64,000 bases of DNA, taken from the NCBI GenBank assembly GCA_036172665.1, contig CM069876.1, positions 36,611,001 to 36,675,000 on the forward strand, written 5' to 3'. Shown here one piece after another: positions 11,200 to 57,050 of the stretch. This DNA is from Prosopocoilus inquinatus. Its lineage: Eukaryota; Arthropoda; Insecta; Coleoptera; Lucanidae. Below the pieces are notes generated by a model. It was not told the origin of the DNA, searched no databases, and saw nothing but the letters and a program-made list of their open reading frames with translations. Each line of letters opens with the position of its first letter. Position 1 is the first letter of the stretch. Position numbers and translations under genes: made by a program.

Positions 11200-11473
11200 A
11201 AAAATTTTTGTGCAAATCGTTTTTCATTGCAGTGAGAACCTCGAGCAGCCTCTGGACAGCTGTTTCAGCCCTGCTTGGGGCTTCTTCAGCAGAAACGTAG
11301 CTCGACATTCCCACTGCAGACCAAAAACGACTTGCCCAATTTATTCGCAAATGCGACAGCAAGCATGGCCGCCTTGCATGGGGGACTCATTAGGAGCAAA
11401 TCCCGCTTCAATTTGTCTATCCTACTGCAATGTTAGGTCAAAAAGCGAGAGTAAGATGTCGCTATTTTATATG
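11200..11473 (+). mobile_element. Hammerhead retrozyme-like insertion (274 bp) inside the mariner element
   Basis: Perfect 13-bp target duplications, TTAAATTGTTTAG, lie at 11187-11199 and 11474-11486. The insert has two parts. 11200 to about 11345 is the inverted (-) half, containing a complete hammerhead. About 11346-11473 is the forward half, running from 'cagcaagcatgg' to 'gctattttatatg'. Together they make close to one 312-bp monomer of the family seen at 53 kb, with an internal inversion. The target duplication lies inside the mariner right TIR, so this insertion is younger than the mariner insertion. Confidence 0.85.
11243..11303 (-). ncRNA. Intact hammerhead ribozyme (type I-like), copy A
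   Basis: Read on the - strand the 61-nt motif contains, in order: stem I 5' strand (GAGC, internal loop TAC, GTTTCTG), core CTGAAGA (fits CUGANGA), stem II AGCCC-CAAGCA-GGGCT, core GAAA, self-complementary stem III CAGCTG, cleavage UC (GUC triplet), and stem I 3' strand (CAGAGGC, T, GCTC). Stem I pairs 7 bp (two G-U) plus 4 bp across an asymmetric internal loop. The predicted cut is between 11255 and 11254. The palindromic short stem III implies that activity needs a dimer or a co-axial neighbouring unit, as for other short-stem-III genomic hammerheads. Confidence 0.82.
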
Positions 11474-11973
11474 TTAAATTGTTTAGTTATTGTTATCCAT
11501 AGCCTACTTGATTGTTGCAAAAAACATGAAACTTTTAATTGAAACTTGAATGCCATGTATCTCAAAGCCTGTTTGATTAAAATATCAAGTGTTTTATGTT
11601 TTCGTAAACAGAATTTTTTGCTCTTTTCAAAAATGTAAAAATATAGAGGGTGTTCCATATAAAAAATTAAAGTTCTGGCTTATATCTCAAATATTGAACA
11701 CTCTAGAAAAAAAGTAATTCTGCATAAAAAAGTGCCTAAAAAAAGTTTTCACAGAAATTAGAAATCTTAATAAACAAAAAAGTTATAAAGGTTTCTAGAA
11801 ATCGCAGAATTTAAACGTCCCCTAGCGCCTAAACGGTTCAAGATATCGAAATGCGGTTTTTACCACTGAACCTGTCATAAAAATCGAGCTCCAGACAACG
11901 AGGTCGGTTTTTGTCTAACTCTTCTAAAAACAGGTGTTTCCCTTTAAAAGTGTCAAATTTGGCCCACCCTGTA

Positions 11974-18419: not shown

Positions 18420-20373
18420 CTATTCTATTATAGAGTCACCTTTTAGATGGCGATAACAAAAATCACGGCCTGGCATTGATGTTATCTTACAGGGTGTTCC
18501 GGCTCTGGTTGATGCTTTGCATGTGCCTTTGAAAGATGTGTTTATATGTAAGGGTGTCCTACTGCGTGATCTAGAATTATAATGGCCAATCCTCGATCGG
18601 GGAGGGGTAGGACTTCCAAATCCATAGAAATCATCATCTTGCTCGGTGATGTTCGATTCATGACTAGACAGGTAATCACATTTGCCATTTGCATTAGTCA
18701 CAGGAGATGCAAATGAATAGTCTGTTTCTTGAACATCCGGCGAGCTCTTTCTTGTACTATAATCAGGAGTGCTTGTGCTTTGGTTTTGAGTTAAAGATGC
18801 AATCTTGTATGTTTGGTCATTTTTATACAACTTTAAGACACCATGCATCACATATTGTACTAAAAAAAAAACAAACAAAAGACTCTTGTTTTTCAAAATT
18901 TAAAGTATACTTGACTTACCTATTATGAAAGTACACAGTGTAAGGGTTAATTCTAAGGCCCCCAGGGCATTTTCCATGTTATGCAAACCTACAGCTAGGT
19001 TTAAAGGAGGCATTGTTGCCACTATAATTCGCGTGATCGTCTTAGCACCTAGGAAAGCGCAAATAATCATGGCTGTAATTAAGAACAGTACATGCCAGAT
19101 CATGAGGTAGAGGCGATCAACTGAGAGGTCTGTTCCTCCTAGCGCAGTCGTAATCCACGATAGCCGATCCTCTAAAGCCTGACGCGTGTTGCCAACCAAT
19201 ACAATCAAAGAATACAGCGTAGTGTTGATTTCTCTCAACTGCTCCAGTGATGCTTCATACTGCAGTCTTGCCTGCTCGCTCTGCTTTATCAACAGTTGAC
19301 TTGAATCCTCTAGAAATTACGTTTTTACAAAGTTGATCCCCTTACATGCCTACAATCTTACCAATTTTCTGGAAAATGCTTTGGGCCTTTGCTTGAATCC
19401 TCGTGAGATCTTCCAGTAATTCATGATGATTATCGTTAGTCTCTTTCGTTTGCTCTTCTAGTTGCTTGCTGGCCAGTTCTAATTTATTTTGCACCGACTT
19501 GGTCATGCCAGCTAATTCCTGATGGCTTTGAGTGATTAATCTCTTTTCATCGCTCAAGCGTTTGATGTTATCCTCGAGGGCCAACTGGCCGTGAAGTTGG
19601 GCTTGTTGGAGGTCTTTTTGTTGAATTATTAGAGTCTCATGACCTAAGGAAATGACAAACAAAATTTTGAATAAATTGAGTAATTAAATGTTTGTACCTT
19701 TTGACATGGCGTCCAATGTTGTCTGTGCAATCTCTCGAAGGTCCTCTTGATCCTGAACTAACTTCCCGAAGGAATCGACTTGCTTCTGGGTGGTATCCAT
19801 GAGTTTGTTGACGGCGTGCTCGGTTAAACCTATGAACTGACTCTGCCTCACAGAGTAACAAACGGCTCTCGCTCTGTTACTCATTAAATGGTAACTGTTC
19901 CATGCGTCAGCATCCATGGTGCTGGTGCAGTCTCTTATGCTCATTTCACTCGTGCAAGGGTACACTTGTCTACCCTCAACGGACGACTGGCAGTTAAGTA
20001 GCATAACTGCAAGTTTCGCGACTTCCTCGTCGTTCATGTGTTGACAACCAGTTTTTAATTTTAACACAACCTGATTGTGCAACCAAAATTTATTGAATCA
20101 ACCAAGGAGTGAAGGAGGAAAGGAACTTACCCGATGCTGACATGAATCTAGCTCCGATAGAGCAACGCCTGTTAATTTCGCGACTTCTGCTATGAACTTC
20201 TCGTCCATGCTGGAGACCTCATAAGGGACTTTTTGGCTGAATCCTTCCACCAAATCCGTGGAATCTTCCTGTCTGTGTCCGAAGAACGTGCTCAAACTTG
20301 TTAGGTAATTGGAGATCCATGCATTTGAAAAACTGAGAGCGCTGATTACTAGTATTAATCTTATCCCGTTCAT
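18420..20373 (-). CDS. bmb: Brambleberry/Kar5/GEX1-type nuclear fusion protein, complete 5-exon gene
   Basis: Exons on the - strand: 20131-20373, 19698-20070, 19362-19643, 18920-19309, 18420-18859 (GT-AG, phases close; 575 aa). Residues 1-18 are a signal peptide (MNGIRLILVISALSFSNA). The luminal domain carries six cysteines at 78, 90, 108, 120, 129 and 152, with the family signatures ELDSCQ, LNCQS.VEGRQ.YPCT and DADAWNSYHLMSNRARAVCY. About 165-345 is heptad-rich coiled coil. Three hydrophobic segments at about 366-387, 392-409 and 413-435 form the membrane anchor. The cytosolic tail has SRSRSRTP-type basic repeats and ends in a Cys/His knuckle, C-x9-C-x10-C-x2-H. Family role: nuclear-envelope fusion at karyogamy (yeast Kar5, plant GEX1, zebrafish Bmb). 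The insect function is inferred from homology. It lies tail-to-tail with HIRA and head-to-head with the first UTP6 copy. Confidence 0.9.
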
Positions 20374-20877
20374 TTTGAAGTTTTTAAAAAAATAAAGCTG
20401 TTCGTTATAGTTTAAAACGTCAATTCGAATTATATCACAGACCGTTTAATTGTTATTTAAAAGAAAATAACCGTTAACTTTAAACTGGATGTCAAACACC
20501 TGCGCCCAGTGTGACCAACCCACAGAATACCTATACCAACTTAAGACCCACGCCACGCTAAGACCTATGATTGCTCGAACGATTTGTGCTTTCTGTGAGC
20601 ACTTAATAAAGTAATTTACTCAAGTAATTAATTAACGCAGAGAATTTGTAAATAATGCAATTATAACGTTATTTGGAATAGATTAATTAATTAATTAGAG
20701 ATATTGATTAAAGAAAATAAGTGATGTCGCTGCCGTCCGCTACGCCATTGTAGATGTCGCTCGGGTTGCTGTCACTTGTTAATTGATTTCTGATTTGCGG
20801 TAACTTTAACTTATTTGGTTAATTTTGTAAAACGTGCTTCTTAAGTGCATTTAATTTATTGATATTTTAGTGCAAAA
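20374..20877. promoter_or_regulatory. Divergent promoter interval between bmb (-) and the UTP6 paralogue (+)
   Basis: The 504-bp gap between two oppositely oriented start codons must carry both promoters. No TATA box at a sensible distance was seen. A GC-richer core near 20720-20770 (ctgccgtccgctacgccatt) is the likeliest shared element, but I cannot name a factor. Confidence 0.45.
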
Positions 20878-24199: not shown

Positions 24200-26453
24200 A
24201 TGTCATTAAGACAAATCGACGAGGAATTCGAAGAGATGGGGCGGACGAAGTTATTTGATCCTACAGAGAGCAGGTAGGTACTTATTTTATGAATGCCATT
24301 TAATAACGGAGAAAATTACATAAGCTGCTGTTACTATCACTCTTTGCAAGTCACAATCCTTTTGATTTTTTTCCAGGAAAATACGAAGTAAACGCAGACA
24401 GTTCGAGCACAAAATCAGCAGCGTGGCAAGCGGCCCAACTCTACAGGATTATAGAGAATATATAAAGCATGAAAAGAACGTGTTAAGTGACCTTGGATCG
24501 AGGAAAAAGGGAAACGAAGGAAAAACCCTTGAACTCAGCGTGATGAGCCGAATTAAGAAATTGTATGAGACTGCCACGCGAAAATTCTCCAGCTTTGAGT
24601 TGTGCATGTCTTTCTTCACGTTTTGCAAGAAAGTCAATTATACACATGCAGTTTCTTCCATTGTGAAAAATATGATTCAGGTAAAAACTTACGTATACGT
24701 GAAAGACACGTGGAACCATCTTTTTTTTTGGTTGTTGGTAGAATCATACCAATGTACCGGAAGCTTGGCAGATTGCTGCAAAGTGGTATGCATATGAAGA
24801 ATGCAATATCCCTAAGGCTGTCCAAGTTGCACGGCGAGGGCTCGAAATACACAAGAACAGCAAACTACTCTACAAGGAATGCATACATTTGGAGTTGGTC
24901 GAGTGCCATCAGAGATTGCAAAACTGGTGCAAGAAATCGTCAATTGAATCTATACCTGATGAGGAGATGGCATGCATCGATAACTTGAAGATTTATGTCA
25001 AGGAGGTGATCAGTAAAGATTCTGAATGTGAATATCTTTTGGAAATTTTGGAGATCCTCGAGGAATACATGTTTACTGTTAGCGTGCAGGATATAATCGT
25101 CAAGCATTTGCGAGAAAATTATGCGCAAGAAGTCGAAGTATGGCATATTCTTGCACAGAGAGAAAATAAAGGTATTTTTTTCTAAAAGAAATTTGTTGCA
25201 AATCGTTTTTGTCTATCTTACTGCAATGTCAGGTCAAAAAGCGATCGTAGGATGTCGCTGTTTTATCTGTTCAGTATTTTTTTCTGTTTTCCCAAATTGT
25301 TACTTTGTTAAAAATGAAGTTTTGTTTGATTTATCAAAGTGATATAGCAATAGAAACATTTTTTTACATCTCGAACGTTTTTTTTTGTGTGCTTCTGGCA
25401 AAATATCAAGTATGCTCATTTCAAAACATTCTTTTTAATTTCCAATAAAAATAATTGTGATCGATACTTACCTTGTAGGATTATTTTATCCCTCTGATCA
25501 GCACTTAAGCTCAGCGTCAACAAGGACGAAACTCAAGCTGGAACGGTGTTGTGAAACATATAAAGAAGGCCTGAAGCAAATATCGGAGCTCAAAAAGGGA
25601 GAGTTGTGGTCACGTTATCTCGACTGTTTGCTGCAGCAGTGCGAAGACGATTTTGCTTCCTTCAAAGTCTCCAAGAAAGATATGCTACTGAATGCTTTAG
25701 AGCAGGCGTGCGAAGATCGCTGTTTATTAGAAAACCACTTCATTTTTTGGCTGGAATATGCCAGTGAAGACGAAGCCGCACAAATACTCGAGAAAGGTAA
25801 TGAACAGTTTTCTCGCTTGCCAAATTTTTATTCACGGGAATTTTCTTGAAGGTTTGAAGGTGTATCCGAACTCCTTGCAACTTTGGCAGTTGCGATTAAA
25901 GTGCGAAATCGATAAGAGCGATCCGATTGCAGTTGGCAAGGTTTTCCAGCGAGGCATAGATCAGTTAAGGGAGCGGTCTCTGTCACTTTGGACTGCGATT
26001 CTGCAGTACTACTTGCTGTATTCCAAGGACGACCTCGTCGAAGGCATTTATAGGCAAGGAGTGGAACAACCTCCTGAAATATCAGCAGTTTTAAAGCAGA
26101 GGTATTTAGAGTGGTTAACTGTGACGAAAGGGATTGAAGCAGCAAGGCTTCAATACTCGAAAATGGCAAATAAAGAGCCTCTTTGCAAGGGCTTGCATTT
26201 GACGATGGCCCGGTTGGAGTCTTACGAATTGCACAGTAATTTACCAGCGTGGGAGAAAGTGCTTAAAACTGGTTGCGAGCAGTTCGGGAAGGAAGACGTG
26301 GAGGTTTGGATTAATTACATACAATTTCTGTGTCAGTTTAAGAAGGAAAACCCGGTAGTCCTGCAGGAGGTTTACAAGTTGGTCAAAAACAGCCTGCCAG
26401 ATACGCTCTTTTTATCTTTCGAAGATGCCTACAAGCACATGATTCTGACGTAA
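24200..26453 (+). CDS. Utp6: UTP6, U3 snoRNP/SSU-processome protein, full length
   Basis: Exons 24200-24273, 24377-24680, 24742-25171, 25479-25796, 25852-26453; GT-AG throughout, phases close to 575 aa (human 597). N-terminal UTP6 domain with EFEEMGRTKLFDPTESRKIRSKRRQFEHKI. HAT repeats follow: RIKKLYETATRKFSSFELCMSFFTFCKKVNYTHA, EAWQIAAKWYAYEECNIPKAVQVARRGLEIHKNSKLLYKECIHLEL, ERCCETYKEGLKQISELKKGELWSRYLDC, and the C-terminal ALEQACEDRCLLENHFIFWLEYA...SLQLWQLRLKCEID block. It is a scaffold subunit of the UTP-B complex in the nucleolar 90S pre-ribosome, needed for 18S rRNA processing. Intron 3 contains a 91-bp hammerhead-family insertion (25184-25274) starting 12 bp after the splice donor. A diverged half-length paralogue lies 3.3 kb upstream in the same orientation. 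Confidence 0.93.
25184..25274 (+). mobile_element. Truncated hammerhead retrozyme-family insertion in UTP6 intron 3
   Basis: A perfect 11-bp target duplication TATTTTTTTCT lies at 25173-25183 and 25275-25285. The insert is a short inverted end (gttgcaaatcgtttttg) joined directly to the forward end (tcttactgcaatgtcagg ... gtcgctgttttatctg). It has the same outer termini and inverted/forward topology as the longer copies, but the ribozyme is deleted. The left TSD begins just after the exon 3 donor GT. Confidence 0.82.
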
Positions 26454-39119: not shown

Positions 39120-40320
39120 AACTCGCGTTTATTTTTAACCTTTCATACCATTGGTCTTTCCCTGCCTTTATTCTTATTTTATTGGATTTCTCTTCTCTAC
39201 CTCGAAAGGAGGGTACGGTCAGTTTCGGCTTTATTAACGTCCAACGTGCTTGGAGCAGGTAACTCATTCTTAATTAAATACAAATTGTCGCCTAAAATTT
39301 ATTAACATCATACTCAAGTTTTGTGATGTCTTCCGGTCTTTTCTAGAACCCCCCCCCCCCCCCGCAATTTCATGTTGAATGGAAATAACTCTTTCGTGTT
39401 GGAATTAATAAATTGCATTTACAGCTGACCCTTCATACCAATGGTCTTCCCACGCCTTTATTGTTATTTTATTGGGTTTTTCTTCTCTACGTCGAAAGGA
39501 GGGTATGGCTTTCGGCTTTATTAACGTGCAACGTGCTTGGAGCGGGCAGAGTCCGTCTCGCGGTAAATTTGGTAATTCATTCTTAATTAAATACAAATTG
39601 TCGCGTAGAATTTATTAACAGCTTCCTCACGTTCTCTGATGTCTTTCGGTCTTTTCTAGAATCCCACCGGCCGCAATTTCATATTGAATTTAAATAACTC
39701 TTTTATGTCTGAATTAATAAATTGAGTTTATATTTGACCTTTCATATCACCGGTCTTCCGCTGTCTTATTTTATTGGGTTCGTCTTCTTTACCTCGAAAG
39801 GAGGGTACGGCCAGTTTCGGCTTTATTAACGTGCAATGAGCTTTGAGCGGGCAGAGTCCGTCTCATGGTAAATTTGGTAAGTCATTTTTAATTAACTACA
39901 AATTGTAGTCTAGAATTTCTTAATATTTTCCTCAAGTTCTGTGATGTCTTTGGGTCTTTTCTAGAATCACCCCCCTCCCCTCCTTAATTTCATTTTGAAT
40001 TGAAGTAACTCTTTCGTGTTTGAATTAATAAATTGCGTTTACAGTTGACCCTTCATACCAATGGTCTTCTCGTGCCTTTACTGTTATTTTATTGAGGGTA
40101 CGGTCAGTTTTGGCTTTATTAACATGCAACGTACTTAGAGCACAGAGTCCGTCTCGTGGTAAATTTGGCAATTTTTTTAAAATTAATTACAAATTGTCGT
40201 CTAGAATTTCTTAACATTTTCCCCCAAGTTCTGGGCTGTCTTTCGGTCTTTCCTAGAACCACCTCGCCACATTTTATGTTGAATTCAAATAACTTCTTTG
40301 TGTTTGAATTAATACAATTC
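39120..40320 (+). repeat. Tandem array of ~0.3-kb units (about four units)
   Basis: Units begin near 39138, 39424, 39731 and 40041 with 'gacccttcataccaatggtctt'-like sequence. Each carries 'gaaaggagggtacgg..ttcggctttattaacgt', 'aattaaatacaaattgtcg' and 'gatgtctttcggtcttttctagaa' followed by a variable C-run. The C-run is expanded to about 15 C at 39350-39364. This is satellite-like DNA. Confidence 0.8.
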
Positions 40321-41379
40321 CAACTTAGTTGCAAATGTGTTCTTAAAATACTCGTGAGTCGTAAAAACTACCCGCTTGACTAATGCACATGAAAGGCAAG
40401 ATAAATCGTCTTCGCTAATCTCTCCTTATTTTGAATACCGGCCCCGTTAAATTGCCGTCTTATCCCGACAGGGTGCATATTAGCCCCCGATCCCGGAACA
40501 TCTATTATCCGATTAGTCACAAAAATGCTGCTGGTCGGAAATAAAATTGAACGCACCGGGGGTGATAGATGATCGCGCGTTCGGTTGCGGCCCCATTCGT
40601 TTTCTGCCCCCCCCCCCCCTCCCTCCCTTTCTCTCCCATCCGGGCCTTAATTTCACCCCGTAATTCGTAAGCGGCGATTAAGAATTCAGTAATTCCCCTA
40701 AGGAGATTGCCTGCCGACGAAAAACTAATATTTGACAGCGGCGAAGTTTCCAACTCATGTAAAATTCACGAGGGATAATGAGGGTTACATAAATAACAGC
40801 GTTGATAGTGTTTAATGTTTGAGTAAAGAGAGGGTAGATTTACGGGAGGATGTTTATATGGAACTAAATAACAAGAGTACTTACTGTAAAAAAAAAAAAA
40901 AAGAAGTACGCTTTAAACGTTTAGTAATATTACCTGACGGTGTTGACTTTCTTAATGAATATTTTTTAAAAATAATTTGTTTCGCCAATCTGTAATTTTT
41001 GATTTTTGTTTGTTTTGTGTCTTATTTTCTCTACGTTCAATTTTTACTTAAGCAACTTTTATAAATATGTATTTACAGTTTTGATTTTTTTAGTTTTATG
41101 TTGCTTTTCGTCTTTTTTCTTTTGTTACTAAACTTCGGACGTTCCGAGCTTTCGTTGTCATGGCTGCGCGATATGTGGACGATGAATGCACGCTAATCGT
41201 ACGTACCCGTACGACGATATACACTATTCATTGGTCGTCGTATTGCGCTATCGTGGCAGTGTCCAAAAAGTTCTAAGATTAGTTATTATTACAATTGCTC
41301 ATACCCGATAGTCTATAACTTAGATATCTGATATCTTTATCTCCTTACCTTTCGTTTGTATAATTAAAGTACATACAAT

Positions 41380-43620
41380 AAAATCCATTTGTCTCATGTT
41401 CTTCTTCAGACTTTCGTCTTTCGATTTTGTTTCGTCTTTTCTCATTGCCTTTAATTTTTTTGGGTTCTTTATATTCCATGCAAAGGTCTTTTCTTTGTCT
41501 TCTTTTTCTCCAACTCCTCTTCCCTCATCTTCCTCCTTCCATTGCATTTCTTGTTCTTTACTGGTCATCGCCATTTCTTTTTCTGATTTTCTTGCAATTG
41601 TATCTAATCGTTTTATCCCTTCTTCTATTTTCTTTTCTTCCTAGTTTGGTCCTCATCTTCTTTCCTTTCCCACATTTTTCTTCATTCATCCGTTTTCCCG
41701 CCTTGCCATCTATGTTTCTCATTTTCCTAGATTTTTCACAATTTTCTCATTTGGAAAACTTTTTCTATTGACTGGATCTTTCTCGATCGGTCATCTTCCT
41801 TTTTCTTTTTTTCTACTTCTTTAGAATACACTATTCATTTGCTTTCTCTCTGCCTCCACTTTCACCATCTACTCCTCCCCTCATCCTCCTCTTTCTTTTC
41901 ATTAAATTTTCCTTTTCCTGTTTATTTTCCAATGTTATCTCATTTCTGAATTTTTTAACAATTATTTGCAAATCTTTTTCTATTGACTCATCTTCCTCGT
42001 TATGTCATCTTCCTTTCTCTTTTTTTCCATTCCTTTGAATACTCTATTTATTTGCTTTCTTTCTGTATCCGTTTTTCCCGTCTCCTCTTCCCCCCATTTT
42101 TCTTATTTTTTTCATCTATTAATCTTTTTCTTTCCATGTGTCATTTCCGAATTAAGTACTGGGTGCGACATTGCCAAGCGGTCACGTAATTAAAACTTTT
42201 ATTTACGTGTTACATAAAAATAATTAAATAATAATATAACTTGTGATGTACAAGCAAAGTGCATACTTAGCACAACAAAGATAAAAAAAGCGCACCTGTG
42301 ATTACACAAAGGAATCTATTCTATTGTTCTTAGCAGTAAACAAGGCCAAGGTGAGATATCAAGGGAAATATGATTGCATTAATTATAGTCTTTTGTTATT
42401 ATAAATATATCTTATCTTCTTCTTTTTCCGCATTATCTTTTGGTTAACCTTTTCCTTTTTTGCCTCCTTTCTTGTCTTTGTCTTTATTTTTCATCTTTCT
42501 TTTCTTGAATTATTTTTCTGAGCAGTTATATTTTTTATTTTGTTTCTTTCTGATTATTTCCACTCTCATCTTCTTTATTTTTTACATTTTTTTACACATT
42601 TTTTCTCGCGTTCTCCACGTTGACCATTCTGTAATCTTCAGTACTTTACATTAATCCTTTTCATTTGCGTTCTTTTTTCTTATCTCGTTCTTATCTTTTG
42701 CTCTTTCTCGATCTTATTTTCTTAGTCCATTCTTTCTAATAGTTTTTCTTTTTTTATTTTTACTTTCCCATTTTCCACGTTGGTATACCGGAATTATTTT
42801 CATTTTCGTTTTCGCAAATGATACAGTTTTATCTTTGATTGCAAGGATAATGTAGTGGTGGTGTCTCTGCTTTAACCTGATTTATACTTTTTGTTATCTT
42901 TGGAATTAGTTGAAAGTCACCTGACCTTTAACATTCTGAATTTTAAATTATTATCGAAAATATCGGGTTAGTGGGTAATAAAAGACTTTTTTTCTTTTTA
43001 TGCTAAGCTTTCGGAAACCTTTATTGCCTTAATCAGAGCAAAATCTATTTTTATTTTTATATTTTCGATGATATTTAATTCCCAACGGTCAAAAACTCCT
43101 TGGTGCGTTATTCTGAATTTTCTTAAAATTTACTCTTCCCTTCTTTGCTTTCTTTCCACCCTCGTCTAGTTTAATAACGGTTAATACTATTTGATTTATT
43201 TACTTTTTTTGTCGTCTTTTTTTACCCATTTCGTCCCCTTTCTTTTTCCTACTATTTTGATAATTTTAATATCATTTCCTTTATCTTGTCCTTTTTGCAT
43301 TTCGAAACGGGATCGAAATCGAAAAATCTAAAATAAGGATAATCCTACTATTAGAAATTGAGTTTTTTAGAACCTCTTGTATTGTCTCATTTTCTTTAAT
43401 TTTTTGGATTTTTGCAATTGTGTTTACTTACGTTTTTTCTTGTTTCTTTCCTGACTCGTTTCGTCCTCTTACATGTTTCTCTTCCTTTACCTGTACCTTT
43501 CTTGCTCTTCTTACCTTCTTATTTGATTTGATTTTAATTGAAATTGTATTTGCTTGCATTATTTCTTTAATTCGTTTCGTTTTTCAATTGTTTTTTTTTA
43601 TAGTTACATAGGAAACGCAT
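41380..43620. repeat. Pyrimidine-rich (T/C) tract on the + strand
   Basis: Long C/T-rich stretches with few purines, rich in 'cttttct' and 'ttcctc' phrases (for example 41390-41770, 41980-42130, 42420-42780, 43140-43620). Open frames here are F/S/L-rich artefacts. Differs from the 1-7 kb T-rich blocks in its higher C content. Confidence 0.55.
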
Positions 43621-45456
43621 GTTTATTTATTCTTCTGTTCCTTCTCCTACTCGTGAATGGTTTTCAACTAGCTTTAGTTTTGTTTTGTTGTTCGAAATGT
43701 AAGTTTTTTTTTCATAATAATTTATAATTTTTGTTTAACCGTGACGTTTCTTTTTATTATTTTCTTGGGCGAGTAGATCGAAATATGTATGCGATAACAA
43801 ATGTACGAAAAGAAAAAAAGAAATTAAAGACTTAAACTTTCTTGTTTGAAGAACCGCCAGAAGACCTACAACACTTAGAGAAAAATTTAATTTGTGCAAT
43901 AAGTGCTGATTACTCTGTCAGTTTTGAGTTAAAAAAAAATAATTTGAATAATTTTCGAAATAAAATAACATTTCGAAAAGCAAATTATTATTTTTCTTTT
44001 TTTTATTAATCTGATTATTTACAAATTGAAAAAAAGTTTCTGGGATTTGGTCGATATACAGTATATATATAACATTGTCCACTGGCGTCATTACTTTACT
44101 CGTTTTTCACGAGTTCCTAAGTTTCTTATTTTTTTTTAACGAATGTTTACGAAATGAATTTTTTCTTGCAGCAATACTTGAGAAAACACAATCTCTCATG
44201 GGGAGTAAACATTATGTTACAAACGTGTATGCTTGGTTGTCCTAGGTACTCGGCTGTAAAATTTTCACAGCAACACCTAATAGATAGGCAACCATTAATA
44301 CCGGTGAGTATATCCAGTAGCATAATCTCAAATTTATTATTGTTTTTTTTTCTGATACTTTTTCTTAACTCATTACAACCACAGTTACAACACGTACGAA
44401 AGTTGACCCATAAATAATTCCACAGTGACATAACTTACCAATTGTAACGAATTTTGTAACGAATCATGATCATCTTCAGAATTTATTGCATAGAAAAATT
44501 TAAACTCCGAGATGAGAAATAGTAAAAAGAATTCAACATTCAACAACATAAATAATAAAATGTTTGAACCTATTCAGTCACATGGAGGCCTTTTAATTTA
44601 ATGTTCTTTTTAAGTTTACAAGCGAGTTAAACGACCGGGCCCAAGTTAATTACCAGTGGTAATTATATAACTGATGTTATAATCAATAACTTTGATTTTT
44701 GTTAATCCAAATAAATTTATGAAAAAGGTAGAATGCGTGCAAGATACTATTACTCCAATACACTCGTGATATTACGGTTGCCTACCCACTTAGGCGGTGC
44801 CATGAGAAGTTGCTGCCGGAAAAGTTCTTCCCGGATTTATTTAGGGGTGCGGCAGCCCGGCGTATAATAGAGAACAGTTTATAAATAACTTAGCAGCGAT
44901 AGGCAACCGCACATACACATTTGGCACGTAATGTTACTTCTTTATAAGAAAGTGGCTCAGGACTTTGATGAAATTGAAAAGATCAATCGTGTGTGTCATC
45001 GCAGGCGAAGAACTACATCCAACTTAGATTATTACTACAGTTTGCGTCTGCCATAACCCATTAACGAGTCGACTCAAACTTTTGCTCGGCAACGATTCAT
45101 AAAAAAAGTTTAATTGGGCGACAAAGTCCGGAGGTCCATCCGAACTTCTTTGATTATCGCAGCGAATTCTGACTTATTGCAATTTTGCCACTACAACTGG
45201 ACAAAACTCTGCTAACTCGTAAATTCGTAAATTTAAACGAAAAAGAGTTTCAGTTTAATGGGAGACGAAGTACTTATTAACATTTTACTAGCGAAGTTAT
45301 AAAAGAACTTCGAAGATCATCAAGTCCTATCATCCCTTTATTAAAACACGTGATTGTGCAAGAATAGTATAATAAAGTTGAGAGTGAAATACGCATTCTC
45401 ATGCTACGTGCTTCATATGTAAATGATCGAAACGGAATGAATTCGATAGAACTTAC

Positions 45457-46252
45457 CGTTTACACGCCGGGGGTGGCTTAATCCCGTGCGCCTCGAGCTC
45501 CTTCTCAAGCTGTTTACACCTCATTTGAGATATATCGAGTTCTCGCTTGACTTTCCACAAGTGCGTGTCGCAGATGGGATCTCTGCATCGGTGATTTCTT
45601 AGAATGTCCTGGGCTTCGTAGACCGCTCCCCGGAACGTTAGGCTCTTGCCCATGGAGAGGCTGATGAGGGCGCAGCACCCGCCCCGATCCGTTTTCGCCA
45701 AGTGCTTGCGGACGTACTTGAAATAAAGGTGTTCTAAAAATAACAAAAGGGCGGCCAGTAAAATTCCGGCCATCAGGAGGAGGAAAGCGGACAAGAACTG
45801 TTCCAGGGCTAGGGGGTCGGAACTCTTGACTTCTTGCTTGCCGGGCTTGCACGAGCCGGTCATCCAGTACCGCCTCAGTCGTTCCAGGTCGCCGTTTTCT
45901 CGGAAGTCCAGCATTTTCTTGTTGAACATCTTCAGGTATTTGGAATTGCGGGGAAAGGCCAGGCCGTAGCCGGTCATCGCGTACCACGCCCCAACGGTTA
46001 GCAGGCGGCAGTCTTCGTCTTGCGAGGTGAGGTAATCTAAAACGGTGCCGTCGTAGATGAAGGCGTCCATATCGCCTGCGACGACGGCCTCGACGCCTTC
46101 CAGGACCGTACTTTTGTTGAAGCTTTTCATGTAGGCGTGCATCTCTTTGAAGTATTTGGCAAGCGTCGAGTCCGTGTGGGACCAAGGAATGGTTCCGAAT
46201 TTTATTAATGGTTTGTGCGAGAACGGGCGGGAGAGACGATGGTCATCCACAC
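45457..46252 (-). CDS. Nmdar2: Nmdar2 exon: ligand-binding S2 lobe, M4 and start of the tail
   Basis: Acceptor ctttag, donor gtaagt; 796 nt, entry phase 1. It encodes [23 protein letters not shown], the S2 lobe with the GluN2 glutamate-site signature [13 protein letters not shown] (the Asp contacts the ligand amino group in vertebrate GluN2) and [13 protein letters not shown]. The end of the lobe is [13 protein letters not shown]4 is [25 protein letters not shown] and is followed by a basic juxtamembrane tail with a heptad-like segment ([24 protein letters not shown]). It joins in phase to the 56740-56959 exon upstream across a 10.5-kb intron, and to the tail exon 17.3 kb downstream. The exon is distinctly GC-richer than the surrounding introns. 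Confidence 0.93.
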
Positions 46253-46517
46253 CTAAAGACACACAAAAAAATGTTATTAAATTAAACAAAATATATTTCA
46301 ATTAATATTTATTTGCTCTACCAAGAAATCAAGCTTCCCAAATAATTTATTGTAGAAATGAAGAAGGGTTACTCCTTGAAAATGTCAAAAAAATAAAGAG
46401 GTGGAGAAAAGAAAGGAAGAGAAGAGAAGACCAATAGAAGAAAAGGGAAGAAAACAGAACGAAAATGCGCAACATGTGCTACAACCCCTAACAAAAGTAT
46501 TGCCAGTTTCAAATCAA

Positions 46518-48014: not shown

Positions 48015-48425
48015 AAAAAAAAAAAAAATTGTTGCAAATCGTTTTTGATTGCAGTGAAAACCTCGAGCAGCTTCTGTACAGCTGTTTCAACCCTATTTGG
48101 GGCTTCTTCAGCAGAGACTAGCTCGAAATTTTCACTTCAAATTTTCATTCGCATTTGCGTAATAAGTCTTTTTTGGTTTGCAGTGAAAATTTCAAGCTAG
48201 TCTCTGCTGAAGAAACCCCAAATAGGGCTGAAAGAGGCTGCTTGAGGTTTTCACTGCAATCAAAAACGATTTGCAACAAAATTTTTTAAATCTTTCATTA
48301 TGCTTTGACAGCAAGCATGACCGCCTTGCATGGGCTAGCTTATTATGTAGCAAACCTGCTTCAATCTGTTATCCTACTGCAATGTCAGGTCAAAAAGCTG
48401 TCGTAGGATGTCACTGTTTTATCAA
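48015..48425 (+). mobile_element. Diverged hammerhead retrozyme-family insertion
   Basis: The 9-bp duplication TTTAATATT lies at 48006-48014 and 48426-48434. Topology is inverted half (to about 48150), then forward ribozyme-bearing half, then forward end (cagcaagcatgaccgcc ... tcactgttttatc). The outer termini correspond to those of the 11-kb and 25-kb copies. The sequence is an older subfamily: aaatagggct replaces aagcagggct in the stem II loop. Confidence 0.78.
48065..48124 (-). ncRNA. Hammerhead ribozyme copy B, near-intact
   Basis: On the - strand: gagc, loop ta, gtctctg, CTGAAGA, agccc-caaata-gggtt, GAAA, cagctg, TA (GUA triplet), cagaagc, t, gctc. The core is consensus. The cleavage-site nucleotide is A rather than C (allowed by the NUH rule, usually slower) and stem I has one mismatch. 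The forward twin at 48195-48245 has lost stem III and the cleavage site (ctGAAAgaggctg) and cannot cleave. Confidence 0.68.
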
Positions 48426-49176
48426 TTTAATATTTTTGTTAAAATTACCACTCTTTTTTATTTGAGTAATTTTAAATACAATCAATACCTTCATCAAGTT
48501 ATTCGAGAGAGGAGAGAAAGACAACGACATAGGAGAGAAAGACAGCGAGAGAGAAGAATTTGACAATTTTTAGGTAAATAACGGTCCTGTTCCGACGTCT
48601 CGAGGGAAACACCTTCGCGAGAGCATTTTTCGGCTATCAATTCAAACCAAATAGCTGCCGAACAAGAAAATTGCTCTTCAGCGGTGGCTCGTTCGACAAG
48701 AAGCAGGTTGGAGCAGTTTATTTGTGAAGGGGGGGGGGGGTTGTTGTGTATCAGGGTAAAAGAGTTTCGAGTGCGTATTCGGATTGACCACCCCTAAATT
48801 ATTAGGCAATTAACCCGCGGTTGCTACATTTTTATCGAGAGTTCTGCCTGGGCCTTCTACGAAGGGAAGATAAGAGAACGGAAGAAATGGGACGAAAATG
48901 GAAGAGAAGGAAAATGTGCCACAACCCCTAGCAAATGCTTTACCATGTAATAGTGTCACGGTAAAGAAAGGGCTATATTATCTAGGTTTTTTCTTAAATC
49001 TACCCAGCGCCTCCACCATGTTACGGACAGAAGAAAAGGGCGTTACTCCACCAGGTCACGAAAATAGAAAGAGAATTAACTGCCCCTCCGTCATGTCACG
49101 TGGAAAGTAAGAAGATTAAAAGTTTATAATGTCTATGCGCGTCATTTAATAAAAAAGGGGTTTTAACCGTCTAAGG

Positions 49177-49320
49177 GGGGTATTCTGTAAGTTTTTAACG
49201 GGTTATTAAAATTTAGAGGTCCTTTAAATATTTAAAATATAGTTCTATGATTGGGTGTTACCGTAGCAATAAAATTTAACAGGCCTTTAAACTTAACGGT
49301 TTTAATACAGAATAGGCCCC
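49177..49320. mobile_element. Tandem MITE pair, copy 1
   Basis: About 144 bp with an internal hairpin: gggtattctgtaa ... ttaatacagaatagg at the ends, and taaaattta / aaaatttaac inside. Followed after 4 bp by a second copy. Confidence 0.6.
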
Positions 49321-49324
49321 TTAA

Positions 49325-49465
49325 GGGGAGTATTTTGTAACCTTTTAACGGGCTGTTAAAATTTAGAGGTCCTTTTCAATTAAAAATACAGTTCTATGAT
49401 TGGTTATTACCGTAGCAACAAAATTTAACAGCCCTTTAAATTTAACGCTTTTGGTACAGAAAAGA
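49325..49465. mobile_element. Tandem MITE pair, copy 2
   Basis: About 141 bp, head-to-tail with copy 1 and similar throughout (tttaacgggctgttaaaatt, atagttctatgattgg-like core, accgtagcaa). Probably a local duplication. Confidence 0.6.
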
Positions 49466-52033: not shown

Positions 52034-53377
52034 TTAAGGCGCCTGGATGAACTCTTTGACCCAAGTGACTGCGACAGAATGAAGACCAGTGCTTCCAAAT
52101 TGCTTCATTTTGGCAGAAGTTCACACCAATTGACCAGGAGATTTTGTTTGTTCGATTTAAATCCGATTAGGTTGTAATGAAGTTTCTCCTTCAGTTATGG
52201 CTTCCGGCGGGAAAAATGCGTTCCACATATTGTAACGTTGATAATTGGTAATCTGGTTTTTACAAAGAAGTAACATATACTTTTAGGGGTTGCGTAGCCG
52301 AATTAATACAAGACAAAAAACATCAAGTACATTTATTATCAGTTTGAAACACTGAACAAAAAGCACTATTACGGACGATATGAGTTCACGCACTATAATC
52401 AGTATATTGATGAACTGATGCTATCGGAAATTTATATCTGAAGTTGATCTATTTTCCGGTGTTCGTGGGCGATTGACGTAACGCTGTGTTCTTGGAGCTC
52501 TCGATGATTAATTTTTCTCTGTTGCCGGATTATTGTTATGTAATCATATCCAAGGTTTTCCATCAAGGATTTCTTTGCAATGTAAGACTTATTGGATAAT
52601 TATTTCTTCTGGTACATTATAAACAACCATCAATCTGGAGTCGATCCGAGGATTCGCGCAAGAGGACGACTTGATGACATAAACAATAACCAATAGAGGA
52701 AAAGTATTAGCAAAATTTCCTTTTATGCGACGAAAATGGTCGCGCCTGATCAACACAGCAAAATGTTTAATAATCATCAGGGTTGCCACTTCTCTAAAGG
52801 AGAATTTCGGAACGTAACAGAACCGGAAAATGTGGAAGGAGAGTCTCGAAGGCCTGTAGCTTTCACACAAATGACGAATTTAAAAAAAATTGCCAATTGT
52901 TTTGAGAATCGGAATAGTTCTGATATTGTTTAATATAATAAACAAAAAAACACCAGAACCAGAAGTTCTAATTATTTAATTTAGGAAGTCATATAAAAAA
53001 TTTGGTGACCCAATCTCAATTAAGTTAATAACACTACTACCCCAACTAAAGGTTCATACATGACTAATTCTATTTCTATTCTAAAATTCTTTCACAACCT
53101 CAGAATAGAAGATTCGACGGTGGGGATGTGTTTCTAAGAAGAGCTAGTTCATCCTAACTTCTGCATTTTTAACGATAAAATGATAAACATATAAAATAGC
53201 GACATCTTACTATCGCTTTTTGACTTTTGACCTAACATTGCAGTAGGATAGACAAATTGAAGCGGGATTTGCTCCTAATGAGTTCCCCATGCAAGGCGGC
53301 CATGCTTGCTGTCAAAGCATAATGAAAGATTTTAGAAAAATTTTGTGCAAATCGTTTTTGATTGCAGTGAGAACCTG

Positions 53378-53438
53378 GAGTAGCCTCTGGACAGCTGTTT
53401 CAGCCCTGCTTGGGGCTTCTTCAGCAGAAACGTAGCTC
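53378..53438 (-). ncRNA. Hammerhead ribozyme copy C (intact core)
   Basis: Same 61-nt layout as copy A on the - strand. The predicted cut is between 53390 and 53389. One change in the outer stem I (ctactc for ctgctc) breaks a single outer pair. All core positions are consensus. Confidence 0.82.
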
Positions 53439-53450
53439 GACATTCCCACT

Positions 53451-53498
53451 GCTGAAGAAGCCCCAAGCAGGGCTGAAACAGCTGTCCAGAGGCTGCTC
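53451..53498 (+). ncRNA. Hammerhead ribozyme copy D, 5'-truncated at the inversion junction
   Basis: Starts at the head-to-head junction. CTGAAGA, stem II, GAAA, CAGCTG and the GUC site (cut after 53486) are present. The 5' strand of stem I has been replaced by cattcccactg, leaving at most 3 bp next to the core, so cleavage in cis is doubtful. Confidence 0.7.
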
Positions 53499-53749
53499 GA
53501 GGTTCTCACTGCAATCAAAAACGATTTGCACAAATTTTTTCTAAAATTTTTCATTATGCTTTGACAGCAAGCATGGCCGCCTTGCATGGGGGACTCATTA
53601 GGAGCAAATCCCGCTTCAATGTGTCTATCCTACTGCAATGTTAGGTCAAAAAGTGATAGTAAGATGTCGCTATTTTATATGTTCATCATTCTTACATCGC
53701 ATCTGCGAATGAATTGGGCAAGTCTCTTTTGGTCTGCAGTGGGAATGTC

Positions 53750-53810
53750 GAGCTACGTTTCTGCTGAAGAAGCCCCAAGCAGGGCTGAAACAGCTGTCCA
53801 GAGGCTGCTC
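53750..53810 (+). ncRNA. Hammerhead ribozyme copy E, fully intact
   Basis: GAGC 53750-53753, loop tac, GTTTCTG 53757-53763, CTGAAGA 53764-53770, stem-loop II 53771-53786, GAAA 53787-53790, CAGCTG 53791-53796, UC 53797-53798, CAGAGGC 53799-53805, GCTC 53807-53810. Predicted cut after 53798. Every consensus core nucleotide is present. Confidence 0.87.
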
Positions 53811-54061
53811 GAGGTTCTCACTGCAATCAAAAACGATTTGCACAAATTTTTTCTAAAATTTTTCATTATGCTTTGACAGCAAGCATGGCCGCCTTGCATG
53901 GGGGACTCATTAGGAGCAAATCCCGCTTCAATGTGTCTATCCTACTGCAATGTTAGGTCAAAAAGTGATAGTAAGATGTCGCTATTTTATATGTTCATCA
54001 TTCTTACATCGCATCTGCGAATGAATTGGGCAAGTCTTTTTTGGTCTGCAGTGGGAATGTC

Positions 54062-54122
54062 GAGCTACGTTTCTGATGAAGAAGCCCCAAGCAGGGCTGA
54101 AACAGCTGTCCAGAGGCTGCTC
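54062..54122 (+). ncRNA. Hammerhead ribozyme copy F, core C3 mutated
   Basis: Same as copy E except that the first core nucleotide is A (ATGAAGA instead of CTGAAGA, at 54076). C3 pairs with G8 in the folded core, so loss of activity is expected. The cut would have been after 54110. Confidence 0.8.
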
Positions 54123-54892
54123 GAGGTTCTCACTGCAATCAAAAACGATTTGCACAAAATTTTTCTAAGATAATATGATAGAAAACTAGATGACGAGTTT
54201 CTTAATAGAAGTATACTTCTAGAAATATCTCGGTTAGATTATGAAGCCCGCACATTAGTGAAGCTACTAATAGCATTGTGGGTGGTCTGTACATCATGAT
54301 GAAAATCTGTTTTATAAATATAAGAAAATACATAAGTTTTCTTGTGTAAGTGATTTTGAATAAATTAACTGCCTCCGCCTCGTCGTCTAAACTTAAACAC
54401 GAGTTCTTGAATCTTGCTCGGTGTAATTTCGCCGGATGGAGTCCAAAAAGTTGCGCGCATAGTTCACAAACGACTAACTATTCCACAAAGGAATTTGTCC
54501 TCAAACTTGGCTCGTCTTCTTAGCATAATAATGTGTGTACGGTTTGCTCGTCACATACGAAATTCGTTTTCTGCGGCTTCCTGTGTCTAAATAATCAACC
54601 CTCCTCCTTCTCCTCCTCCTCTTCGCCCGCCCTCTCAAAAATTCACTTCTCTAAGTTTCTGAGGTTATTAAACAATGCATGCTTAATTTGGAACGTCTGC
54701 CTTCAATGATTCCATACACTTACGATTCCTCCAAAGAAACTCGCTTTTATACAGGGCGCATAAAAGGGAGTGCAGTAAATAAATTATTTTTTCGTCATAA
54801 AGTGGTCTCGGGGGAGTCGTCGTGGTCGTAAAAGATGTTTTTCGTCAGAGGAAGTAAGTCGTTCCGTGCGGACGTAATATGTTTGAGTGCAG

Positions 54893-54915: not shown

Positions 54916-56739
54916 CACTGTCCTTTGTGCACTTAGAAGTAAGTTCTCTTTATGGAGGGATCATTTTTATTTGTTTTGTTTTTCCTTTTTACTTTCATGC
55001 CAACAATAAACAATTGCGATTTGATCTGGGCTGGGAATCTCTTAAAAGTACACAAAATAAAATGCAGACCAGCAATTAAGATGATGGTAAATCTTGAAGA
55101 CGTTTTCTTGAAAGGGAATTTAACTTGCGGGGCTAATTGAAGTTTTTCTTTACGAAATAAATTGAATTGGATTAGTCCGAACTGTAAATGCTGAAGCTAT
55201 TTTCCCCTTCCCCCCTCCCCGGGTCTAATTTCGATCCTTTCCAGTGAAGATAATGTTAACAAATTGATGAGATTCCCGCGTTAATAAAATTTCCACGTCA
55301 CTGACGGCTTAACAGAATACCGCCGGCAAAGTAGGTTAAGAGGAAATTGCGTCCTCCGGAGCACCAATAAAACACCGGACACGAAATGATATTTCAGCTT
55401 TATTAAACTTTAAATCGTCGTTTTGCTGCAGTTATAATAAATTTCCCAAATGCGATGCACAGGCACAATGTATCTTGCAGGAGGAAGAGGAAGAGCCTTC
55501 CGCCTCTATTTTAAGTTTTTAAAATCGAGCACTAAGAAATCTGCATAAATACTGGAACAGGTTCAGGTGCGCAATATTTCAAGCTTTTAAGGAAGAAGCA
55601 CCGCGTAAATAAATGTTGGGGTAATGGTGAGGGGATCAGTTTGATTCTTTCAAATTAATCTCTGCCATTGCCGGAGTGAAAGGTGAGGTATTATTATAAA
55701 GCGACGGTTCTGGATTAATATTTAAAGTTGGAAAACGGTCCTATTTACACTTTCGACGTTGACGGATGCTCGTGGCTTCGCGCGAATAAAAGGTTTAAGT
55801 GCAACCGCGACTTTTCGCAGCGAACAAACGGTTTTGTGCTTGGTTGACGAGCGGAGAATTGATCGTTAAAAAGGGGAAAACCCGGAGAAATTTATGGCGT
55901 ATTCGAGGCTATCAGTGCGCAGTTAAATTTTAAAAGCACCTACACAACACGGCTTACTTGAACTGTAATTATTATGAGCTGTGTGGTATCTCGAAAAATA
56001 CCTACCAAAAGATCGTAAAGTGGAAAACATAGTAAAAAGCTAGTAAACGATCATAAATTTAAAGAAAAAGTTAGTGTAAGTACTTTTTTCCTTCAATGAA
56101 GAAAAGAGGCAAAAATTAACGACATTTCGACACCTTCTAAGAGTATGATATAAAAACAATTTGGAAATAGAAGGGCAAAGAAAAAGATAATATACAGAAA
56201 AATAAAAACAATAAATTAAGCAACGTCTTCAGTTAGTTTCAGTTGAGGAAAAACGCACCGACAGAATTACTATATAATAATATAATAATAATTAATTACT
56301 TGCAGAGAAGTTACATTTATTTTAATAAATCCCGGCACATTGTAAACGTTTTGATTGACCAGCCCCCGGGCGGCTGATTAACGTCGTTCGTGCTCAAGTT
56401 CAAGTGAAGTACTGACCTTGACCTATCTTCGGCTTCAGGTCGTAATTCAAGAGGCGGCCGCGTTCCACTTTTAGCTATGCCAGTAGTTCTCAAACGGTTT
56501 AGTGAACATCTGCCACTGCATTTTTCTCGAAAACTATTAAATTTTTGTTAAGAACATTTGAGTTCAACCGTTGCCATTTATGGTGATATATTACAGGTTT
56601 AAATATTTGCACACAGCAAAAGAACATCCAGTATAGTAATCACAAATTCTATAATCATCTGTAATAATTAATTCGTTTAAATTGAAAATCAAGGTGGATG
56701 AATGAGACGTGTTAAAACGTGTTAACTGGGAGCTTTTAC

Positions 56740-56959
56740 CTGTAAAATCGTAGAATTCCTCACGGGTAATCATAAAGGCGGCTAAATTGGCAGTGTATAT
56801 GGCGAGGAAGACGACGGCGAACATGGCCCAGACGTTGGTCATGAAACGGGCTGTGAAGCCCCTCGGAGAGTCCACGTGCACGGCTGCTTGGAACAATACG
56901 GCCCAGACGAGCCAGTAGGTCCGGAAGAGTGAAAATCGATGTGACGCCGAAGGCGTCGA
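56740..56959 (-). CDS. Nmdar2: Nmdar2 exon: channel pore (M2) and M3 gate
   Basis: Acceptor tttttgcag, donor gtaaaag; 220 nt. It encodes [75 protein letters not shown]2 re-entrant loop: [13 protein letters not shown], with Gln at the position of the vertebrate GluN2 pore Asn. M3: [21 protein letters not shown], the YTANLAAF gate motif with Ile where vertebrate subunits have Ser (SYTANLAAF). The exon ends in phase 1 and joins exactly to [10 protein letters not shown] of the next exon. The amino-terminal domain, S1 and M1 exons are not in the window. Product: glutamate-binding subunit of a neuronal NMDA-type receptor, paired with Nmdar1. Confidence 0.92.
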
Positions 56960-57050
56960 CTGCAAAAAAGTCAAGAAAAGTGTAAGAGTCCGTATTCTTG
57001 TGAATATTATTTTTATAAGTCGATACATTTTATTTAATTAAGAGACTTAT

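What the first reader, a model, noticed from the sequence alone, without database searches (positions are those of the whole stretch)
53186..54168. Tandem hammerhead-ribozyme retrozyme: three cut sites exactly 312 bp apart
Seen: two complete 312-bp monomers that differ at about two positions, bounded by hammerhead cleavage sites after 53486, 53798 and 54110; consensus core CTGAAGA/GAAA, 5-bp stem II, palindromic stem III CAGCTG, GUC site, 7+4 bp stem I with an internal loop; a 12-bp target duplication around the whole insertion. Known: metazoan retrozymes are short tandem hammerhead repeats whose RNA self-cleaves, circularises and is reverse-transcribed. Inference: this is an insect retrozyme family recently copied from a multimeric or circular RNA. 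The particular family may be undescribed.
Basis: partly seen in the sequence, partly recalled or inferred. Interest (0 to 1): 0.92.

Follow-up and report, generated by a model that had tools for sequence, protein, structure and literature searches.

The report
Ribozyme retroelement inserted as a fold-back
A tiny self-cutting RNA element of an insect genome appears to be written into DNA from an RNA circle starting at both broken DNA ends, at two fixed start points, much as a reverse-transcriptase element in the same genome does, which suggests what kind of enzyme moves such elements.

Summary
Insertion A (53186-54168, 12-bp target duplication, one mismatch) is a fold-back: an inverted copy of the 312-nt hammerhead unit (53186-53452) joined to 2.3 direct units (53449-54168). 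One + strand hammerhead (cut after 53798) is complete; the 53486 site lacks outer stem I, the 54110 site has lost core C3. The window holds three more copies, all fold-backs; one unit segment occurs 20,553 times in the genome.

In 39 mapped loci plus 13 consecutive places, with few exceptions, arms end at two fixed unit positions, S (c54-60) and L (c190-199). Of 40 two-armed insertions with target duplications, 39 use one of each, one uses S+S. Targets are cut before GTT. Arms run up to 7 laps; variants sit mostly in one lap or in all laps, as one RNA circle would give.

The same genome carries a young Penelope-like element whose fold-backs also pair a short and a long end (17 of 17 with target duplications) and share the GTT preference. 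Best reading: a metazoan retrozyme inserted by Penelope-type, two-ended, target-primed rolling-circle reverse transcription. RNA, cleavage and helper identity are untested.

The parts
53174..53185 (.). left target-site duplication GATAAAATGATA
53186..53452 (-). L arm of insertion A: inverted copy of the unit, outer end at unit position c197, inner end about c250
53359..53451 (-). hammerhead ribozyme on the - strand (core intact; cut between 53390 and 53389; middle of stem I carries two changes)
53449..53452 (.). 4-nt microhomology CTGC at the join of the two arms
53449..54168 (+). S arm of insertion A: 2.3 laps of the unit, outer end at about c58
53487..53798 (+). complete 312-nt unit 1 (c1-c312)
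53799..54110 (+). complete 312-nt unit 2 (differs from unit 1 at 2 positions)
53734..53826 (+). the one complete + strand type I hammerhead, cut after 53798
54046..54138 (+). third hammerhead copy with core C3 changed to A at 54076; probably inactive
53510..53530 (+). locally predicted hairpin (c24-c44) just before the S start site; not formed in the predicted circular fold of the consensus
53652..53671 (+). locally predicted hairpin (c166-c185) just before the L start site
54169..54180 (.). right target-site duplication GATAATATGATA
11200..11473 (.). fold-back copy B (S arm left on - strand, L arm right on + strand); 13-bp exact target duplication TTAAATTGTTTAG at 11187-11199 and 11474-11486
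48016..48425 (.). older fold-back copy C (about 81-88% to the unit); 9-bp target duplication TTTAATATT
25184..25273 (.). shortest fold-back copy D: only the S end and the L end regions; 12-bp exact target duplication GTATTTTTTTCT

Best explanation
It is a non-autonomous metazoan retrozyme family that is inserted by a Penelope-like element's machinery. Proposed cycle: genomic units are transcribed, the hammerheads cut the RNA into 312-nt units, these are ligated into circles (all inferred, not shown). A GIY-YIG/RT protein cuts both strands of an AT-rich target just 5' of GTT, 11-15 bp apart (inferred from the target duplications and the flank motif). The two free 3' DNA ends then prime reverse transcription on the RNA at two fixed internal sites, one end at S (c54-60), the other at L (c190-199); each cDNA runs round the circle for a variable distance, up to seven laps. 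The two antisense cDNAs are joined, usually by a short microhomology, and filled in, giving a fold-back insert with its 3' ends outward and a target duplication. Shown from sequence in the copies mapped: fixed S and L ends, one of each per insertion, target duplications, GTT flanks, joins that differ between insertions, continuity across the ribozyme cut site, lap and arm variant sharing. Inferred: the circle itself, the enzyme, and that the young Penelope-like family called PLE1 here is the helper.
For: Fold-back with fixed ends: 39 loci mapped (35 genome loci with the best full-length matches plus 4 in the window); 38 of 39 have arms on both strands. 31 of 39 have both S and L ends and a target duplication (30 of 11-17 bp, up to one mismatch, and one of 9 bp); of the other eight, L051 is S+S with an exact 13-bp duplication, L052 is one arm (c221 to S) with 11 bp, L009, L015 and L017 are S+L without a clean duplication (L015/L017 one duplicated locus), L014 has an L arm ending at c170, L047 (duplicate of L045) and L053 end at c247. 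In 13 consecutive places taken in list order from exact matches on contig C1: 8 S+L with duplications (L124, L125, L128, L130, L131, L134, L135, L136), L127 a single L arm, L126, L129 and L132 old or complex, L133 cut by the region edge. Together 39 of 40 two-armed insertions with duplications are S+L; if each end chose freely, at most half would be (P about 4e-11 by the same binomial that gave 7e-11 for 38 of 39). Target: GTT follows the duplication at 22 of 60 ends against 1.8% background. Variants at positions covered by at least four laps (27 of 39 loci kept, 13 contributed): 43 in one lap, 11 in all laps, 7 intermediate. Variants fixed in all laps are shared by both arms in 9 insertions (11 variants; in L012, L038, L041 and L048 one that no other kept locus has, in the others polymorphisms seen elsewhere too) and confined to one arm in 1. 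Join microhomology of 2-5 nt in 20 of 33 joins scored against about 17% of 2 nt or more simulated. PLE1: RT and GIY-YIG domains in one ORF of L073; 150 GIY-YIG matches listed, 130 of equal score, 94 of them in 47 neighbouring '-' then '+' pairs by my count of the list; of 28 pairs tested 17 had an exact target duplication (15 of 11-14 bp, 2 of 8 bp) and all 17 pair one short with one long 3' end about 40 nt apart; GTT at 8 of 34 ends. Published Penelope biochemistry: cleavage and extension of both strands and internal initiation at two adjacent sites (PMC11167929, main text read); inverted pLTR inserts with 8-10 bp duplications and a 31-bp tail (PMC3846280, passages).
Against: No RNA data: neither cleavage, circles nor transcription were tested. 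The unit shows no sequence similarity to PLE1, so the helper assignment rests on architecture and target preference; other PLE families in the genome were not examined. The window's own copy A is the exception to arm sharing: its S-arm variants (three at positions covered by both arms) are absent from its L arm, so two RNAs or later conversion are needed there. Seven variants are in an intermediate number of laps (four of these at position 49), and 5 of the 9 arm-sharing insertions share only polymorphisms that other loci also have. PLE1 pairs without a found exact duplication (11 of 28; 20 windows plus 8 loci) include four that look long+long, two of which show 8-9 bp matches with one mismatch; they were not shown to be single insertions. 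Four of the 11 looked like short+long with a duplication by eye, one is long+short without one, two have unclear ends. The first 35 loci were chosen by match score and the 13 by an exact L segment. Hammerhead pairing across 8 copies is high (93.8%) but not above shuffled controls for most measures, and no Rfam hammerhead reaches gathering. The hairpins before S and L are local predictions; in the predicted circular fold of the consensus the S region pairs elsewhere. A hammerhead-like motif near the PLE1 end seen by eye was not found by Rfam.
Confidence: 0.82

Rival explanations
1. Same dual-primed insertion, but the template is an uncleaved linear multimer transcribed from a genomic array, not an RNA circle; the hammerhead is then not needed for transposition.
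For: The Anolis Penelope works in vitro with hammerhead mutants and unprocessed RNA (PMC11167929). All DNA data only require a template continuous across the cut site. A recently made array would itself have identical units.
Against: Variants fall mostly in one lap or in all laps (43 and 11 of 61; 7 intermediate), and all-lap variants run through up to 8 covered laps and both arms (L038 7 of 7, L048 8 of 8), which one 312-nt circle gives directly. Hammerhead cores are kept in 156 of 162 regions.
Confidence: 0.25
2. LINE-mediated retrotransposition with twin priming: a LINE protein made the inserts and inverted their 5' parts.
For: Twin priming also gives an inverted segment joined to a direct one, with microhomology at the join and a target duplication (general knowledge, recalled).
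Against: Twin priming is recalled as using variable internal sites in a fraction of copies; here both outer ends are fixed and 38 of 39 mapped loci have arms on both strands. No poly-A or simple-repeat tail was seen at the ends. A Penelope-like family in the same genome makes the same structure. LINE families of this genome were not examined.
Confidence: 0.05
3. A DNA transposon or MITE/foldback element: S and L are its inverted termini and the inside varies by deletion and tandem expansion.
For: Fixed ends, target duplications and a palindromic AAC...GTT target would fit a transposase.
Against: Ends vary by several bases and duplications by several bp; by eye S and L ends are not inverted repeats of each other beyond short stretches; inner joins differ between insertions, apart from two duplicated loci, and often carry microhomology; up to 7 laps of a ribozyme unit with variants mostly in one lap or all laps.
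Confidence: 0.04
4. An ordinary satellite or tandem repeat that happens to contain a hammerhead.
For: Head-to-tail units with few differences.
Against: Matches lie on at least 11 of 173 contigs, and 31 of 39 mapped loci have their own target duplication next to both kinds of end.
Confidence: 0.01

Closest known systems
Metazoan non-LTR retrozymes (Cervera and de la Pena 2020, PMC7229834)
   Same: Type I hammerhead in the unit, 312-bp unit without a recognised protein, 43% G+C, tandem units, target duplications longer than 4 bp, strongly self-paired predicted circle.
   Different: The sections read describe direct tandem repeats and leave the mobilising element open, LINE or PLE (sections 13 and 17); the word 'inverted' does not occur in the main text. 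Here 38 of 39 mapped loci are fold-backs with fixed ends. I could not compare target motifs or start sites with theirs; supplements were not read.
Penelope-like elements (PMC3846280, passages; PMC11167929, main text)
   Same: Head-to-head inverted inserts, target duplications of about 8-14 bp, one arm longer by a tail, internal reverse-transcription start sites, both strands cut and extended.
   Different: PLEs encode RT and GIY-YIG endonuclease; this unit encodes neither and has no sequence similarity to PLE1. Its two start sites are about 140 nt apart on the unit against about 40 nt in PLE1 and 30-40 bp tails in the papers.
Newt satellite 2 / axolotl retrozymes
   Same: Short palindromic helix III that favours dimeric cleavage (PMC7229834 passage; newt details recalled).
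   Different: Vertebrate families; their unit sequence was not compared.
Plant LTR retrozymes (PMC4918200; seen in search listings only)
   Same: Ribozyme-bounded non-autonomous elements thought to move through RNA circles.
   Different: Type III hammerheads, LTRs, 4-bp target duplications, thought to use Gypsy elements (passages of PMC7229834 and PMC7761336).

Membership tests
Metazoan non-LTR retrozyme | Type I hammerhead in the unit | tested here: met
   RF00163 alignment with the core matched, 23.8 bits, E 5e-4, below gathering 34; cores intact in 156 of 162 complete regions
Metazoan non-LTR retrozyme | Unit of roughly 150-450 bp in tandem copies | tested here: met
   312 nt, up to 7 laps in one arm
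Metazoan non-LTR retrozyme | G+C below 50% and target duplications longer than 4 bp | tested here: met
   43%; 11-15 bp in the 30 cleanest insertions
Metazoan non-LTR retrozyme | No coding capacity; no LTR, PBS or PPT | tested here: inconclusive
   Longest open stretch 103 aa on the circle, no Pfam match at E 0.01 in the 53565-53876 ORF; PBS and PPT not searched
Metazoan non-LTR retrozyme | Strongly self-paired circular RNA | tested here: met
   Predicted circular fold of unit 1 -108.4 kcal/mol against -76.6 +/- 5.2 in 100 shuffles
Metazoan non-LTR retrozyme | Ribozyme cleaves; linear and circular RNAs in tissue | not testable with these tools
   Needs RNA
Penelope-like element (as the unit's own class) | Encodes RT and GIY-YIG endonuclease | tested here: not met
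   No domain in the unit's longest ORF; PLE1 has both, so the unit is not itself a PLE
Penelope-type insertion mode | Head-to-head inverted arms with target duplication | tested here: met
Penelope-type insertion mode | One arm carries a longer 3' end (tail) than the other | tested here: met
   39 of 40 two-armed retrozyme insertions with duplications are S+L, L051 S+S; PLE1 17 of 17 with exact duplications, 11 of 28 pairs without
Penelope-type insertion mode | Cis-acting end sequence shared with the helper | tested here: not met
   No blastn similarity between unit and the 30 GIY-YIG loci apart from one retrozyme copy in L055 and a 22-base match in L078
LINE twin priming | Variable internal priming site, fixed 3' end only (recalled) | tested here: not met
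   Both outer ends fixed
DNA foldback/MITE | Exact inverted termini and fixed duplication length (recalled) | tested here: not met
   Placed ends spread over 7-10 positions, duplications 11-15 bp

The most novel reading that the evidence does not exclude
A single 312-nt RNA circle is bound by a Penelope-like enzyme so that its two start sites face the two ends of one staggered DNA break; both ends are extended by rolling-circle reverse transcription of the same molecule, and an obligatory one-short/one-long choice of start sites is the general integration rule for Penelope-like elements and their retrozyme parasites.
Probability: 0.55. Interest if true: 0.88.

Novelty: new variant of a known kind. 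Interest (0 to 1): 0.78.

Why it matters
A 2020 review by the group that defined animal retrozymes says their repeats show no conserved motif from which the mobilising retrotransposon could be deduced (PMC7761336, passage). In the copies mapped here the ends supply such marks: two fixed start sites, a GTT target and an insert structure shared with a Penelope-like family of the same genome. This makes two open questions directly testable: which enzyme moves animal retrozymes, and how an RNA circle becomes chromosomal DNA. The one-short/one-long rule also gives a structural constraint on Penelope integration, whose later steps the 2024 in vitro study calls yet to be validated (PMC11167929).

Tried and rejected
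Reading insertion A as a simple tandem array was dropped when the left third proved to be an inverted copy. Twin priming as an accident of one copy was dropped when all four window copies and 31 of 39 mapped loci had the same pair of ends with a duplication. A snap-back of one cDNA was dropped because copies B and D have arms from different, non-overlapping parts of the unit and because the two ends differ. A search for unit relatives outside this genome gave nothing: viral contigs 0, prokaryote genome contigs 0, both expected. Whole-window Rfam at gathering gave 0; a wide-region search was headed by miRNA and other matches on the palindrome. Hammerhead covariation on 8 copies is weak: 2 pairs with double changes, 41-389 of 500 shuffles as high. 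Pairing of the S and L sites with each other in the folded circle was looked for and not seen. In one search the script missed the duplication of L134 because it took a neighbouring old fragment as the edge; with the right edges it is an exact 12 bp. A first core count (195 of 199) held loci fetched twice and a pattern that passed the dead third core; it is replaced by 156 of 162.

Absence from print: the searches showed no title or abstract start that describes fold-back retrozyme inserts or paired start sites; passages of PMC8490949, PMC11722881 and PMC6431247 did not either. The library lacks most subscription papers, and supplements were not read.
Full report
WHAT IS THERE. The window comes from a 650-Mb assembly of 173 contigs. 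The nearest named relatives of the glutamate-receptor ORF at 45453-46301 are from Diabrotica (87% over 94% of the query) and Ceutorhynchus (91% over 56%), with cricket, louse and bee also high, so the host is an insect, probably a beetle. Insertion A (53186-54168) holds two 312-bp units that differ at two positions, a third partial unit, and to their left an inverted copy (94%). Its flanks are a 12-bp duplication with one mismatch. Of the hammerheads on the + strand only the one cut after 53798 is complete: the third has A for C3 at 54076, the first has lost the outer strand of stem I to the fold-back. Rfam's type I model fits the middle one, below its gathering score.

MORE COPIES IN THE WINDOW. 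blastn of the unit finds three more copies, B, C and D, and all are fold-backs. Placed on the unit (c1 = first base after the cut), the outer ends of the four copies fall at the same two places: one arm at about c54-61, the other at about c197-207, although the inner joins differ. D is little more than the two end regions back to back. Once target duplications are set aside, the ends that could be placed by an exact word tighten to c54-60 for S (14 of 30) and c190-199, most often c197, for L (28 of 30).

GENOME SET. One search lists 154 matches from 40 scored of 1829 candidates. I fetched 35 loci, refetched ten with wider windows and mapped them with the four window copies. Of these 39, 31 have both ends and a target duplication. 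The others: L051 is S+S with an exact 13-bp duplication; L052 is one arm from c221 to S with 11 bp; L009 and the duplicated pair L015/L017 are S+L without a clean duplication; L014 has an L arm that ends at c170; L047 (a duplicate of L045) and L053 end at c247. To offset choice by score I took the first 13 places of a genome-wide pattern list in order (exact matches on contig C1): 8 are S+L with duplications, L134 among them after its edges were corrected; L127 is a single L arm with a 9-bp repeat, L126, L129 and L132 are old or complex, L133 is cut by the region edge. One S and one L therefore holds in 39 of 40 two-armed insertions with duplications; free choice at each end gives at most one half (P about 4e-11; one search gave 7e-11 for 38 of 39). 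The L-hairpin segment occurs 20,553 times at up to three mismatches, the backward control 0 times; this counts laps, not insertions. Of 76 laps of exactly 312 nt, 26 equal the consensus and 72 differ at three positions or fewer, so the burst is recent.

TARGET. In 30 clean insertions duplications are 11-15 bp, 24 of them 12 or 13. Turned so that each end reads outward, the base after the duplication is G in 34 of 60, the next T in 47 of 60 and the next T in 34 of 60; GTT in 22 of 60 against 1.8% in the flanks. So both strands are cut just 5' of GTT more often than chance.

TEMPLATE. 28 of the 31 insertions exceed one lap in at least one arm, up to 2286 nt; such arms cross the ribozyme cut site without a scar in the alignments, so the template was continuous there. 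At positions covered by four or more laps (13 insertions contributed), 43 substitutions sit in one lap, 11 in all laps and 7 in between, four of these at position 49. Substitutions fixed throughout an arm are shared by the other arm in 9 insertions; in 4 of the 9 at least one is found in no other kept locus, in 5 they are polymorphisms that other loci have too. In one insertion, the window's own copy A, they are not shared. A circle copied lap after lap by both primers gives this pattern; a fresh multimer could too. Inner joins overlap by 2-5 nt in 20 of 33 scored cases, where simulation gives 2 nt or more in about 17%, as if two single-stranded cDNA ends had annealed; 8 of the 33 (two of them duplicates) have extra bases of 1-13 nt and WC 43.

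A PENELOPE-LIKE ELEMENT THAT DOES THE SAME. Of 150 listed GIY-YIG matches (2232 candidates) 130 have the same score and 94 stand in 47 neighbouring '-' then '+' pairs by my count of the list. One locus has RT and GIY-YIG domains in one ORF. Its 3' end is found at two points about 40 nt apart. Of 28 pairs tested (20, 8 loci), 17 had an exact duplication, 15 of 11-14 bp and 2 of 8 bp, and all 17 combine one short and one long end. In 11 the script found none: four look long+long and were not shown to be one insertion, four by eye are short+long with a duplication, one is long+short, two have unclear ends. GTT follows the duplication at 8 of 34 ends. There is no sequence similarity between the retrozyme and PLE1. 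Other PLE families were not examined.

KNOWN BACKGROUND. Animal retrozymes are known, and PLEs have been proposed as their helpers (PMC7229834 sections 13 and 17; PMC7761336 passages). PLE inserts with an inverted pLTR and an optional 31-bp tail are known (PMC3846280 passages), and a lizard PLE protein cuts and extends both strands and starts at two adjacent internal sites in vitro (PMC11167929 main text). What I did not find in print is a retrozyme with fold-back inserts, fixed paired start sites, or the one-short/one-long rule as a statistic.

VERDICT. The finding is real; it is a retrozyme family that I did not find described, and the better discovery is how it is inserted. Steps shown by sequence in the mapped copies: paired fixed ends, GTT target, duplications, lap and arm sharing, microhomology joins, architecture shared with PLE1. 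Steps inferred: transcription, cleavage, circle, PLE1 as helper.

Noticed in passing
L011 (C10) and L025 (C3): Two insertions with different joins share the same 12-bp target TAAGCTTAATGC and similar flanks, as if inside one repeated sequence that offers a favoured site.
   Followed up: partly
L015/L017 and L045/L047: Two pairs of loci far apart on contig C5 share flanks and inner joins; the first pair differs by exactly one lap (406 against 718 nt S arm), so lap number seems to change after duplication.
   Followed up: partly
L049:1513-3125: One insertion with five segments of alternating strand between an S and an L end, as if several template switches occurred.
   Followed up: no
L073:1920-1965: Hammerhead-like motif with palindromic helix III about 45 nt before the short end of PLE1; seen by eye, not found by Rfam at E 5.
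   Followed up: partly
L055:2142-2467: A retrozyme copy lies near a GIY-YIG match that does not align with PLE1, a different and unstudied family.
   Followed up: no
window 10010-11077, - strand: 355-aa ORF with weak HTH_Tnp_Tc3_2 and DUF4817 matches below cut-off: perhaps a Tc1/mariner-like transposase, just left of copy B.
   Followed up: partly
window 39258-40319, 693-1446, 49172-49461: Other tandem repeats (305 bp x 3.5, 400 bp x 1.9, 149 bp x 1.9) without a hammerhead core in the scan.
   Followed up: no
window 1-8000 and 40001-44000: Long stretches with strong A/T strand asymmetry (AT skew about -0.3) rich in T runs.
   Followed up: no
window 14914-15330, 18420-20445, 25731-26453, 45453-46301, 56591-57037: Host gene pieces: HIRA-like WD40 repeats, UTP6-like HAT repeats, glutamate-receptor exons; the 18420-20445 ORFs resemble a nuclear-fusion (brambleberry-like) protein only by recall, the one tested had no Pfam match. 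Copy D overlaps the end of a UTP6-like open stretch (24742-25185).
   Followed up: partly
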